Source of the DNA: Sphingomonadales bacterium
Lineage (GTDB): Bacteria; Pseudomonadota; Alphaproteobacteria; Sphingomonadales; Sphingomonadaceae
Assembly: GCA_027491235.1 (NCBI GenBank)
Contig: JAIXWO010000022.1
Location: forward strand, 496,001 to 560,000
Direction of reading: 5' to 3'
Length of the DNA: 64,000 bases
Shown: piece after piece, positions 53,809 to 57,860 of the stretch
Position numbering within the stretch: the first letter of the stretch is position 1
Layout: each line of letters opens with the position of its first letter
Notes under the pieces: model-generated
The model's database searches: none
The model's input: only the letters and a program-made list of their open reading frames with translations
What the model was told of the DNA's origin: nothing
Program-made: the position numbers and the translations under genes

Positions 53809-55197
53809 ATGGCACTCGACATTTTGGTCGTCGATGATGAGGCAGATATCCGTGATCTCGTCGCCGGTGTTCTGGAGGATGAAGGGTATACCGCACGGAC
53901 CGCAGCCGACAGTGATGCGGCGCTTGCGGCCATTGCCGATCGTCGACCGTCCCTCGTGCTTCTTGACGTATTTCTGAAAGGATCGCGTCTCGACGGGCTG
54001 GATCTGCTTGATGAAATTAAGCGCCGCGATCCAAGCCAGCCGGTTCTGGTCATATCCGGCCATGGGAATCTGGATACCGCCGTCACGGCCATCCGGCGGG
54101 GGGCCTCTGATTTCATCGAAAAACCCTTTGAGGCACAGCGTCTGCTCCTGCTGGTGACGCGCGCGACCGAGACGGAATTGCTGCGGGCCGAGAATGAGAC
54201 GCTGAAGGCGCAATATGGCCTTGATGAGCAGCTCAGCGGCACATCGAGCGCGATCAACCATGTGCGGGCTACCTTAAAGCGGGTGGCACCGACGGGCAGC
54301 CGCGTGCTCATTAGTGGACCCGCTGGCGTCGGCAAAGAGGTTGCCGCGCGTATGCTCCACAGCTGGAGCCCACGGGTCAATGCGCCGTTCGTTGTCGTCA
54401 GCGCCGCGCGCATGACGCCGGAGCGGGTGGAAGAAGAGCTCTTCGGGTCTGAACGTCCGGACGGCTCAAGCACACCCGGTCTGCTGGAACGCGCGCATGG
54501 CGGGACGCTTTTTCTTGATGAGATCGCCGACATGCCGATGACGACGCAGGGTAAAATCCTGCGCGTCCTGACTGATCAGAGCTTCACGCGGGTCGGTGGC
54601 CAGCGGTTGGTAAAGGTTGACGTACGCGTTCTTTCTTCCAGCGCGCGGACGTTGACCGATGAAATTGATGCCGGGCGCTTCCGGGAGGATTTCTATTATC
54701 GCCTGAATGTTGTGCCTGTCTTCATCCCTTCGCTGTCGGAGCGGCGGGAAGACATTCCTTCGCTGGTGGAGCATTTCATCGCGCGCTATTCTGCGGACCG
54801 GCGAGTTCCAACGCCCGATGTGGCGGCAGATGCGATGGCGGCGCTCCAGACCTATGACTGGCCGGGCAATGTCCGCCAGTTGCGCAACATCATGGAACGG
54901 ACGATCATTCTCGCGCCCGGCGACCGTATGTCGCGCATTGATGTGGATATGCTGCCGTCTGAGATTATCAACGACCCTGCGAGCCCCCAAGGGAGTGGGC
55001 CGACATCGGCGATTATGGGGGCGCCTTTGCGTGAAGCACGTGAAGCCTTTGAACGGGAATATCTGCGGGTGCAGATAAGACGTTTTTCAGGGAACATTTC
55101 CCGCACTGCCCATTTTATCGGCATGGAGCGGTCTGCCTTGCACCGCAAATTGAAGATACTGGGCATGGTGGATGATCGGGAATCTTCCGAAGACTAA
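53809..55197 (+). CDS. ntrX: Response regulator NtrX
   Basis: NtrC-family response regulator, partner of NtrY. 462 residues. Receiver with VDDEADIRD and LVLLDVFLKGSRLDG, AAA+ domain with Walker A GPAGVGKEVAA and Walker B LFLDEIADMP, and Fis-type HTH (NISRTAHFIGMERSALHRKL). The sigma-54 loop GAFTGA is replaced by a stretch around GSERPDGSSTPG, as in other alphaproteobacterial NtrX proteins, so it probably does not act through sigma-54. Three bases separate it from ntrY. Confidence 0.94.
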   Translation: MALDILVVDDEADIRDLVAGVLEDEGYTARTAADSDAALAAIADRRPSLVLLDVFLKGSRLDGLDLLDEIKRRDPSQPVLVISGHGNLDTAVTAIRRGASDFIEKPFEAQRLLLLVTRATETELLRAENETLKAQYGLDEQLSGTSSAINHVRATLKRVAPTGSRVLISGPAGVGKEVAARMLHSWSPRVNAPFVVVSAARMTPERVEEELFGSERPDGSSTPGLLERAHGGTLFLDEIADMPMTTQGKILRVLTDQSFTRVGGQRLVKVDVRVLSSSARTLTDEIDAGRFREDFYYRLNVVPVFIPSLSERREDIPSLVEHFIARYSADRRVPTPDVAADAMAALQTYDWPGNVRQLRNIMERTIILAPGDRMSRIDVDMLPSEIINDPASPQGSGPTSAIMGAPLREAREAFEREYLRVQIRRFSGNISRTAHFIGMERSALHRKLKILGMVDDRESSED

Positions 55198-55206
55198 ACA
55201 GTGCGG

Positions 55207-55310
55207 TGGACCCTAGGGCCTGCTGACTGTATAAAGACGGTGTTCCCGGATTTTTTAGGGAGCAGCGACAGACGCCTGATACAGGCGCAATCGCGGGAAT
55301 AATGACCCGC
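55207..55310 (+). promoter_or_regulatory. hfq promoter candidate and hairpin leader
   Basis: TGGACC (55207-55212), 17 bases, TATAAA (55230-55235), predicting a transcript from about 55242. The leader has two hairpins: CGCCTG-ATA-CAGGCG (55273-55287) and GCGGG/CCCGC (55293-55297 with 55306-55310), ending some 20 bases before the GTG. Hfq often binds its own leader mRNA in enterobacteria; such control here is conjecture. Confidence 0.35.
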
Positions 55311-55333
55311 CAAATATAGAAAAGGAATGAACA

Positions 55334-55816
55334 GTGGCTGACAAGACCAACAACCTCCAAGATATTTTCCTGAATACCGTGCGAAAGGCCAAGGTGCCCG
55401 TGACGATGTTTCTCGTCAAAGGCGTCAAGCTTCAGGGCATCATCACCTGGTTCGACAATTTTTCGGTCCTTTTGCGGCGCGATGGTCAATCACAGCTGAT
55501 CTACAAGCACGCGATCTCCACAATCATGCCCGGCCAACCCATCGACATTCCAGCGATGCGTGAAGCCATTGGCGATGGAAAGCGTCAGAAGTCCTTGCAG
55601 GATGTGTTCCTTGGTGCGACCGAGCGGACGCAGACGCCCGTCACCATGTTCCTCGTAAACGGGGTCATGTTGCAGGGTGAAGTCGCGACGTTCGACCTTT
55701 TCTGCCTTTTGCTGCAGCGCGATTCCATGGCGCAGCTGGTTTATAAGCACGCGATCTCGACGGTGCAGCCAGCGCATCCGCTGAACCTCGCCGAGGAAGA
55801 AGAAGCCGGCGATTGA
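55334..55816 (+). CDS. hfq: Tandem-domain RNA chaperone Hfq
   Basis: 160 residues containing two complete Hfq/Sm domains in one chain, whereas ordinary Hfq has one (about 75-100 residues). Domain 1 is residues 7-66 ([20 protein letters not shown] 57-60). Domain 2 is 86-146 ([20 protein letters not shown] 137-140). Proximal-site residues are kept in both. The basic rim (R16, R17, R19 in E. coli) is R-K-K in domain 1 but E-R-Q in domain 2, and the distal Lys31 position is Lys in domain 1, Met in domain 2. The tail has EEEE. GTG start after AAAGGAA. It is followed by hflX as usual. Confidence 0.96.
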
Positions 55817-57111
55817 GCGTTTTTAATCGACAGGAAGACGATGGCTTTGCGCGCGGTGCCAAGGCCATCGTCGTCTACCCCGAAATAGGCCTGAGCAGCC
55901 GCGATCCGGAATCGCGGTTGGATGAGGCGTCTGGTCTGGCCGAGGCGATTGGTCTCAACATTGCTGGCCGGGCGAGTTTCAAAATCCGCGCGGCGCGGCC
56001 TGCGACACTCTTTGGGGCTGGGCAGGTTCAGGACATTGCCGCCCGTGCAGCGGCGGTGGAGGCGGACCTTGTCATCATCGACGGCGCGCTGACACCGGTC
56101 CAACAGCGCAATCTTGAACGCGAACTCAAGGCCAAGGTCATCGACCGCACCGGCTTGATCCTCGAGATCTTCGGGGAACGGGCGGCAACCGCTGAAGGCC
56201 GTTTGCAGGTGGAACTGGCGCATCTTGATTATCAGGCCGGGCGTCTGGTCCGCAGTTGGACGCACTTGGAACGCCAGCGCGGTGGCTTTGGCTTTTTGGG
56301 TGGCCCGGGTGAAACCCAGATCGAAGCCGACCGCCGTCTCATCCGGGACAGGATGGCCAAGCTGCGTCGTGAATTGGAGCAAGTCCGCCGAACACGCGGA
56401 CTGCACCGTGATCGCCGCAAAAAGGCCCCTTGGCCTGTCATCGCGTTGGTGGGTTACACCAATGCCGGGAAATCGACGCTGTTCAACCGGATGACCGGCG
56501 CGACTGTTATGGCGGAAGACCTGCTGTTCGCAACGCTGGACCCGACGATGCGCCAGATATCCTTGCCCGGCGTCGACAAGGCGATCCTATCGGACACGGT
56601 GGGTTTTGTTTCGGATCTGCCGACCCAGTTGGTGGCAGCGTTCCGGGCGACACTGGAAGAGGTCAATGCCGCCGACCTGATTGTCCATGTTCGCGACATT
56701 TCGCATCCAGATAGCGATGCGCAATCGGCGGACGTTGAAGCTGTTCTGACTGATCTTGGTGTGCTCGGGGAAGGGGCTTCCCCCATGATTGAGGTCTGGA
56801 ACAAGATTGACCGGTTGGACGTAGAGGCGCTCGCTTTCCATCATCAAGAGGCGCTCCGGCGCGAAAATGTGGTTCTCGCCTCGGCGCTCACTGGGGCTGG
56901 CCTCTCCGAAATTGAGGAATTGTGCGCGCGGCATCTCACAACCTCTCACCGTCTTCGCACCATCATTTTGGGGACAAGTGATGGCGCCCGGCTTGCCTGG
57001 GTGCATGCGCATGGTCGGGTTCTCGACCAACAGGTGAATGACGATCAGGTCACGCTCAGCGTGCGGATGTCTGACGAGGATTTTGGGCGGTTTGAATCGC
57101 GCATGGCTTAA
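55813..57111 (+). CDS. hflX: GTPase HflX
   Basis: Ribosome-associated GTPase that rescues stalled ribosomes under stress. 432 residues. The N-terminal ND1 domain includes [19 protein letters not shown], the family signature [19 protein letters not shown], then G1 [10 protein letters not shown]2 ATLDPT, G3 DTVGF, G4 NKID. The TTG start overlaps the hfq stop by 4 nt. Its TAA stop and the mazG stop on the other strand share TTAA. Confidence 0.95.
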
Positions 57112-57860
57112 GCGCTGCGTTTGACCTTCTGCCAAAGCGCTTCCATCGCATCGAGGTCTAGGTCGGAAAAAGCATCACCCGCCATGGATTCCATTGCGCG
57201 AAAACGGCCTTCAAACTTTGAATTGGCCCTTCGCAGGGCCGCTTCGGGGTCGACGTCAATTTTGCGTGCCCAGTTTACGACAGCAAAGAGAAGATCGCCA
57301 ATTTCATCTTCGCGGGCATCCTGATCAACCGCATCCTCAACCTCGGCAATTTCTTCGAAAACCTTTGCCTTGGCGCCATTGGCATCGGGCCAGTCAAAAC
57401 CAGTCCGAGCGGCCCGCTTTTGGATTTTTTCGGCACGCAGCAAGGCGGGTAGGCCAAGGGCGACACCGCCAAGCGCACTGGCATCGGCATTACCTTCGCG
57501 TTCCAGCGCCTTGATGCCTTCCCAGTCGGGTTTCTCCGCATCTCCAAAGACGTGAGGGTGACGTCGCAGCATCTTTTCGGAAATGGCAGCGGCGACGTCG
57601 TCGAAGCTGAAACGCCCAGCTTCCTCGGCCATTCGGGCATGAAACACGACCTGAAATAGAAGATCGCCCAACTCATCCTTCAGCGCGGGCAGATCATTAC
57701 GCTCAATTGCGTCCGCAACCTCATAGGCCTCTTCAATGGTGTAGGGGGCAATGGTCGCAAAACTCTGTTCTACATCCCACGGGCAGCCCTTCTCGGGATG
57801 CCGCAGCTGCTCCATGATCGCGAGAAGCTGGTCAATGGATCTTGGACTTGATGCGGACAC
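57108..57860 (-). CDS. mazG: Nucleoside triphosphate pyrophosphohydrolase MazG
   Basis: Hydrolyses NTPs to NMP and pyrophosphate, cleaning damaged nucleotides. 250 residues with two MazG folds: the first with GCPWDVEQSFATIAPYTIEEAYEVADAI, ELGDLLFQVVFHA; the second with EEIAEVEDAV, EDEIGDLLFAVVNWARK. Both EExxE-type metal motifs are kept. Convergent with hflX. Confidence 0.94.
   Translation of the reverse strand: MSASSPRSIDQLLAIMEQLRHPEKGCPWDVEQSFATIAPYTIEEAYEVADAIERNDLPALKDELGDLLFQVVFHARMAEEAGRFSFDDVAAAISEKMLRRHPHVFGDAEKPDWEGIKALEREGNADASALGGVALGLPALLRAEKIQKRAARTGFDWPDANGAKAKVFEEIAEVEDAVDQDAREDEIGDLLFAVVNWARKIDVDPEAALRRANSKFEGRFRAMESMAGDAFSDLDLDAMEALWQKVKRSA

What the first reader, a model, noticed from the sequence alone, without database searches (positions are those of the whole stretch)
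55334..55816. Hfq with two complete Sm domains in one chain and diverged RNA-binding faces
One gene encodes two Hfq domains joined by a roughly 20-residue linker. Both keep the YKHA proximal motif, but domain 2 has lost most of the basic rim (E97-R98-T99-Q100 against R17-K18-A19-K20 in domain 1) and carries Met112 where domain 1 has Lys32 on the distal side. If six Sm folds still form the ring, it would be a trimer of dimeric chains with two alternating kinds of face, giving asymmetric RNA binding. I recall tandem Hfq being noted in sphingomonads, but the consequences of the alternating rim are, to my knowledge, little explored.
Basis: partly seen in the sequence, partly recalled or inferred. 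Interest (0 to 1): 0.75.

Follow-up and report, generated by a model that had tools for sequence, protein, structure and literature searches.

The report
Two-domain Hfq of Sphingomonadaceae bacteria
This bacterium makes its RNA-chaperone protein Hfq as two fused copies that have become different from each other; the fusion has been in print since 2010 and is normal for this bacterial family, but how the two unlike halves share the work has, as far as could be searched here, not been measured.

Summary
The architecture is not new: NCBIfam has a model of the long form (NF010691), and Yang et al. 2010 (PMC2877685) described it in Zymomonas mobilis and six other Sphingomonadales and asked whether three chains make the ring. 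Added here: of 113 sampled genomes of the window's family, 108 are tandem and 5 single. One duplication at the ntrX-hfq-hflX locus is the simplest origin. Both domains keep the proximal and most distal pocket residues. Near-fixed are Lys28 in domain 1 (108/108) and Met31 (104/108) and Gln63 (105/108) in domain 2 (E. coli numbering). The domain-2 rim loss is graded, not fixed. The acidic tail follows domain 2 only, with twice the median charge of single-Hfq tails. AlphaFold2 places the domains confidently against each other in two divergent chains (pTM 0.87 each). Best reading: a working Hfq ring of three chains with alternating faces. Oligomeric state and RNA binding were not tested.

The parts
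55334..55816 (+). hfq, two Sm (Hfq) domains in one chain, 160 aa, GTG start
   Evidence: only Hfq in the genome
55320..55326 (+). AAAAGGA, Shine-Dalgarno-like, 7 nt before the GTG
   Evidence: read by eye; inference
55352..55531 (+). domain 1 (residues 7-66): basic rim R17 K18 K20, K29 and K32, M65, proximal Q9 K58 H59
55532..55594 (+). linker, residues 67-87; net charge +1; AlphaFold2 helix 72-79
55595..55771 (+). domain 2 (residues 88-146): rim E97 R98 T99 Q100, N109 and M112, L122, Q145, proximal Q89 K138 H139
55772..55813 (+). acidic C-terminal tail, 14 residues, net charge -5
53809..55197 (+). ntrX, upstream neighbour
   Evidence: NF051870, 741 bits
55813..57111 (+). hflX, downstream neighbour; the TTG start listed for it overlaps the hfq stop by 4 nt
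   Evidence: TIGR03156, 448.8 bits

Best explanation
It is the ordinary hfq of a Sphingomonadaceae bacterium, in the tandem form that most simply arose once within that family. Most likely three chains close into one six-Sm ring in which domains 1 and 2 alternate. All six proximal pockets still take uridine-rich 3' ends of small RNAs. The basic rim patches that speed annealing are strong on domain 1 and weaker on domain 2. The distal side alternates between a doubly basic unit (K28, K31) and one without these lysines (N28, M31). One acidic tail per chain clears RNA from the rim. Shown here: gene, fusion, conservation, distribution, residue differences, tail charge, and a confident one-chain model with fixed inter-domain placement. 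Inferred: single origin (one tandem row is unplaced), ring of three chains, alternation, division of labour, tail action.
For: Hfq profiles hit both domains. ntrX and hflX flank 107 of 108 tandems; hflX also lies beside all 52 singles. In 108 tandems Q8, Q52 and K56 are invariant in both domains; in domain 1 and domain 2 respectively H57 is kept in 106 and 108, F25 in 107 and 107, Q33 in 108 and 101, T61 in 106 and 108. Purifying selection on both domains (window against L061). Domain 2 is one clade, 99% SH-aLRT; domain 1 one clade, 92% (23 of the 108 tandems and 14 of the 52 singles). AlphaFold2 pTM is 0.87 for the window chain and for L106, a divergent 144-residue form with a 15-residue linker, while one domain alone aligns at query TM of 0.37-0.41, so the model is confident about where one domain sits against the other. 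Tail charge: median -6 in 94 tandems (14 fast-evolving g12 rows left out) against -3 in 52 singles; linker median 0. E. coli parallels: distal mutants Y25D and K31A have the most compromised mRNA association (PMC7987339, passages); acidic tails displace RNA from the basic rim (PMC5606850, passages).
Against: Covariation between domains had too few effective sequences (23 from 188) and its top pairs do not single out an interface. The rim charge of domain 2 is still +1 to +3 in 39 of 108 survey tandems and in 74 of 80 named loci, so a split into three strong and three weak rims does not hold equally everywhere. Six g12 tandems have lost the acidic tail although their domain 1 keeps R16 and K17, which tells against a tail being needed for each basic rim.
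Confidence: 0.7

Rival explanations
1. Six chains form a double ring: one hexamer of domain 1 and one hexamer of domain 2, stacked or side by side, each with its own specificity.
For: Each domain keeps a full Sm fold and its own near-fixed residues; a 15-24 residue linker could in principle join two rings.
Against: AlphaFold2 places the two domains in a fixed relation within one chain, with linkers of 21 and 15 residues alike; domain-2 homo-rings would have six weak rims and no Lys31. Not excluded: which contact the model shows was not inspected.
Confidence: 0.15
2. Domain 1 does the RNA work; domain 2 is a structural filler that decays where tolerated.
For: Domain 2 evolves faster (mean identity 73% against 84% for domain 1 in 94 non-g12 tandems); in six g12 tandems two residues of its first helix and the acidic tail are missing; its rim charge is zero or below in 69 of 108 survey tandems.
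Against: K56, H57, Q8 and Q52 are kept in domain 2 in 108 of 108 tandems, and no amino-acid change separates the window's domain 2 from that of Chakrabartia godavariana against 26 synonymous ones. In L122 and L123 domain 2 keeps His57 while domain 1 has Gln there.
Confidence: 0.12
3. Divergence of the two domains is neutral drift after fusion with no asymmetry in function.
For: The rim of domain 2 varies widely from genome to genome.
Against: Lys28 in domain 1 is 108 of 108, Met31 and Gln63 in domain 2 104 and 105 of 108, over 29 genus codes; drift alone would not be expected to hold new residues so tightly (inference).
Confidence: 0.1

Closest known systems
Tandem Hfq of Zymomonas mobilis ZMO0347 and six other Sphingomonadales species (Yang et al. 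2010, PMC2877685; passages seen); NCBIfam NF010691 / PRK14091
   Same: Two Sm-like domains in one chain, same order of bacteria; the window protein passes the model's cut-off.
   Different: Nothing in kind; the passages seen give no residue-level comparison of the two domains and no oligomer measurement (its supplementary alignment was not seen).
Single-domain alphaproteobacterial Hfq, e.g. Caulobacter crescentus (PDB 6gwk)
   Different: One domain per chain; the 52 singles have N28, K31 and M63 without exception, a basic rim (+2 to +3) and half the median tail charge.
E. coli Hfq
   Same: Proximal, distal and rim sites by homology; acidic tail mechanism (PMC5606850, passages).
   Different: Homohexamer of single-domain chains.
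Eukaryotic Sm/Lsm hetero-rings (recalled; mentioned in passages of PMC2877685)
   Same: Ring of unlike Sm folds.
   Different: Separate genes, seven members; here two kinds within one chain, and the ring itself is inferred.

Membership tests
Hfq (PF17209, TIGR02383) | Profile match above curated cut-off | tested here: met
   188.7 bits against 27; 181.3 against 61.7; two stretches each
Hfq (PF17209, TIGR02383) | Proximal uridine pocket Q8, F42, K56, H57 | tested here: met
   Present in both domains of the window; position 41 is N in domain 1 and L in domain 2
Hfq (PF17209, TIGR02383) | Distal site Y/F25, K31, Q33, Q52, T61 | tested here: inconclusive
   Domain 1 complete; domain 2 has M at position 31, rest kept
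Hfq (PF17209, TIGR02383) | Basic rim patch | tested here: inconclusive
   Met in domain 1 (RKAK), not in domain 2 (ERTQ)
Hfq (PF17209, TIGR02383) | Sm fold: helix and five strands | tested here: met
Hfq (PF17209, TIGR02383) | Six-Sm ring | not testable with these tools
   Only single chains could be modelled
Hfq (PF17209, TIGR02383) | RNA binding and sRNA-mRNA annealing | not testable with these tools
   Needs purified protein
Tandem Hfq (NF010691, PRK14091) | Full-length match to the 176-position model above 270 bits | tested here: met
   288.2 bits, model 16-173
Tandem Hfq (NF010691, PRK14091) | Found at ntrX-hfq-hflX in Sphingomonadaceae | tested here: met
   nearest named species Chakrabartia godavariana, 97%

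The most novel reading that the evidence does not exclude
The fusion has made an obligately three-fold Hfq: a strictly alternating ring with three strong annealing rims, three acidic tails that each police one basic rim, and a distal face of two alternating kinds of site (K28/K31 and N28/M31), so that A-rich mRNA motifs are read with a different register or affinity than by six-fold Hfq. Gln63 in domain 2, a beta-5 residue, would help to set which neighbour fits.
Probability: 0.35. Interest if true: 0.6.

Novelty: new member of a known kind. Interest (0 to 1): 0.4.

Why it matters
Every rim, tail and face of a normal Hfq is present six times, so it is hard to ask how many are needed. Sphingomonadaceae have in effect done that experiment: fewer strong rims, half the tails with twice the median charge, and two kinds of distal unit, kept across the family. 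A native mass and a structure would settle the question asked in 2010, and domain-specific point mutants would then count the sites needed for annealing, tail release and mRNA capture.

Tried and rejected
Chance or assembly error: rejected (108 of 113 family genomes tandem). A second hfq elsewhere in the genome: none. Secondary loss of domain 2 in the five single-domain genomes of the family: not favoured; they carry the N28 and K31 of all 52 singles and branch next to or outside the tandems on the hflX tree. The place of tandem row L037 is unresolved there (support 17; the tandem label needs 2 changes, the least forced by starred branches is 1), so a single origin is the simplest reading, not a proof. 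Gene conversion between the domains: not seen in 23 of 108 tandems. Tandem Hfq outside the family: none found. In 192 class genomes at least 90% complete, two Hfq matches occur in 4: three of the window's family and G254, one of whose matches lies in a frame of 109 aa, so probably separate genes. In 385 class genomes 5 pass the tandem cut-off, all of the family. Score alone cannot exclude short tandems, since six g12 tandems scored in or below the range of singles; I parsed 47 loci outside the family by domain and all are single. Other phyla and classes were not scanned. Inter-domain covariation: inconclusive (effective number 23 of 188). dN/dS over 105 pairs (pN/pS 0.215 domain 1, 0.265 domain 2): many are cross-genus pairs near saturation, not relied on; for g12 only one pair qualified (0.264 and 0.526). 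Structure search for a solved two-Sm chain: the rows shown cover one domain each; that does not exclude such a chain. Promoter and terminator scan of 54900-57300: two promoter-like sites against 0.7 expected, no terminator-like site between hfq and hflX. Rfam at gathering threshold: only two tRNAs in the window. Papers: PMC3474761 lists Novosphingobium aromaticivorans as having two copies of hfq-like genes (passage), which may be the tandem gene counted twice (inference). PMC6563040: Sphingopyxis granuli Hfq acts with the sRNA SuhB (passages). PMC10725011, PMC13414033, PMC5770649, PMC7546472 and PMC9797736 were looked at by term only and gave nothing on the two domains. No paper on the oligomer of a tandem Hfq was listed in ten searches of an open-licence library; Sun et al. 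2002 (recalled) is not held. Corrected on checking: a notebook entry says that about five residues of the domain-2 helix are missing in the short g12 forms; it is two.

Full report
Observation. The gene at window:55334-55816(+) is as described: GTG start, 160 codons, stop TGA. Pfam finds two Hfq stretches, 188.7 bits in all; the NCBIfam model NF010691 (PRK14091), 176 positions long, matches at positions 16-173 with 288.2 bits, cut-off 270. It is the only Hfq in the genome. Upstream lie ntrX and an ntrY-like frame (named by eye), downstream hflX, whose listed TTG start overlaps the hfq stop by 4 nt, and a mazG-like frame on the other strand (named by eye). The nearest named species is Chakrabartia godavariana, 97%; an unnamed MAG record is 99% (L175).

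Known already. Yang et al. 2010 (PMC2877685, passages seen) report two Sm-like domains in Z. mobilis ZMO0347, the same in six other species within the Sphingomonadales, and ask whether only three chains would be needed for the ring. Ten searches of an open-licence library (named in Tried and rejected) listed no measurement of the oligomer.

Distribution and origin. In 196 genomes of the order the window's family (code f1) has 113 members: 108 tandem and 5 single (G053, G105, G121, G133, G155), each parsed by domain (genomes recounted). The tandems span 29 genus codes. Of the 83 genomes of other families 77 have a match and 6 none; 22 of the 77 were parsed and are single, and none of the 77 scored above 150.4 bits. 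In the class, 5 of 385 genomes pass the tandem cut-off, all f1, and of 192 genomes scanned with PF17209 the two-match ones are three of f1 and G254, probably with separate genes. Tandems have both ntrX and hflX beside them in 107 of 108 loci (L080 lacks a hflX hit); hflX lies beside all 52 singles, ntrX was found within the held flank of 11 of those 52. The tandem is thus the ordinary hfq. On a hflX tree of 54 rows (35 of 108 tandems, 5 f1 singles, 14 of the other 47 singles; quick method) the f1 singles branch next to or outside the tandems; L037 is unplaced, and one origin is not ruled out by any starred branch. On a 66-column domain tree (23 tandems, 14 singles) all domain 2s form one clade (99) and all domain 1s another (92). 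One duplication without later exchange is the simplest reading.

What differs between the domains (E. coli numbering; the E. coli ruler is recalled). Over 108 tandems: position 28 is Lys in domain 1 in 108 and Asn in domain 2 in 108; the 52 singles are all Asn. Position 31 is Lys 102 or Arg 6 in domain 1, Met 104 in domain 2; singles all Lys. Position 63 is Met 99 in domain 1, Gln 105 in domain 2; singles all Met. Positions 38 and 41 are Trp and Asn in all 52 singles and in 94 of 94 non-g12 domain 1s, but Ala in 83 and Leu in 87 of 94 domain 2s. Kept in both: Q8, Q52 and K56 without exception, F25, H57, T61 and Q33 nearly so. The rim, positions 16-19, has net charge +1 to +3 in domain 1, +2 to +3 in singles, -2 to +3 in domain 2; 69 of 108 domain 2s are at or below zero, but only 6 of 80 in the named set, which is closer to the window and was picked by similarity.

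Linker and tail. In 94 tandems (14 rows of the fast-evolving genus code g12 left out) the linker is 20-24 residues, median charge 0; the tail after domain 2 has median charge -6 (range -2 to -15); 52 single Hfqs have median -3 (range -2 to -8). Per ring of six domains the tail charge would be about the same (three tails of -6 or six of -3). In E. coli the acidic tip competes with RNA for the basic rim (PMC5606850, passages). That the doubling serves one tail per basic rim is my inference.

The g12 rows. All fourteen g12 tandems evolve fast. Six of them (L106, L110, L120, L122, L123, L124) have a 15-residue linker, no acidic tail, and lack two residues (positions 14-15) of the first helix of domain 2; in L106 AlphaFold2 makes that helix 9 residues long against 12 in the window. 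They keep K56 and H57 in domain 2; in L122 and L123 it is domain 1 that has Gln at 57. Their domain 1 keeps R16 and K17 although the tail is gone, which tells against the idea that each basic rim needs its tail.

Selection. Between the window and L061 (the same DNA as the Chakrabartia godavariana locus L176) domain 1 has 0 non-synonymous and 19 synonymous changes, domain 2 has 0 and 26.

Mechanism. The best-supported picture is a six-Sm ring of three chains with alternating domains; all proximal pockets intact; strong rims on domain 1 and weaker ones on domain 2; two kinds of distal unit. In E. coli, K31A and Y25D most strongly reduce mRNA association (PMC7987339, passages), so Met31 in half of the units should matter, and the gained Lys28 of domain 1 may offset it. 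These last steps are inference.

Verdict. Observation confirmed, interpretation partly supported, architecture already known; the near-fixed K28/M31/Q63 set and the halved number of tails with doubled charge are the useful additions and make the 2010 question testable with point mutants.

Noticed in passing
window:55813-55816: The listed TTG start of hflX overlaps the hfq stop codon by 4 nt, which suggests translational coupling.
   Followed up: no
L106, L110, L120, L122, L123, L124 (Hfq gene within 1270-1953): Six genomes of one genus have shrunken tandem Hfqs: 15-residue linker, no acidic tail, two residues fewer in the first helix of domain 2; in L122 and L123 position 57 is Gln in domain 1 but His in domain 2.
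   Followed up: partly
L104, L105, L107, L108, L109: Five genomes of the same family have single-domain Hfq with N28 and K31 and seem to branch before the duplication.
   Followed up: partly
L037: A tandem whose hflX is placed beside the single-domain genomes with almost no support; could be the earliest tandem branch or a moved gene.
   Followed up: no
G254 (no locus fetched): An alphaproteobacterium of another family with two Hfq matches; the one listed lies in a frame of 109 aa, so the two are probably separate genes.
   Followed up: no
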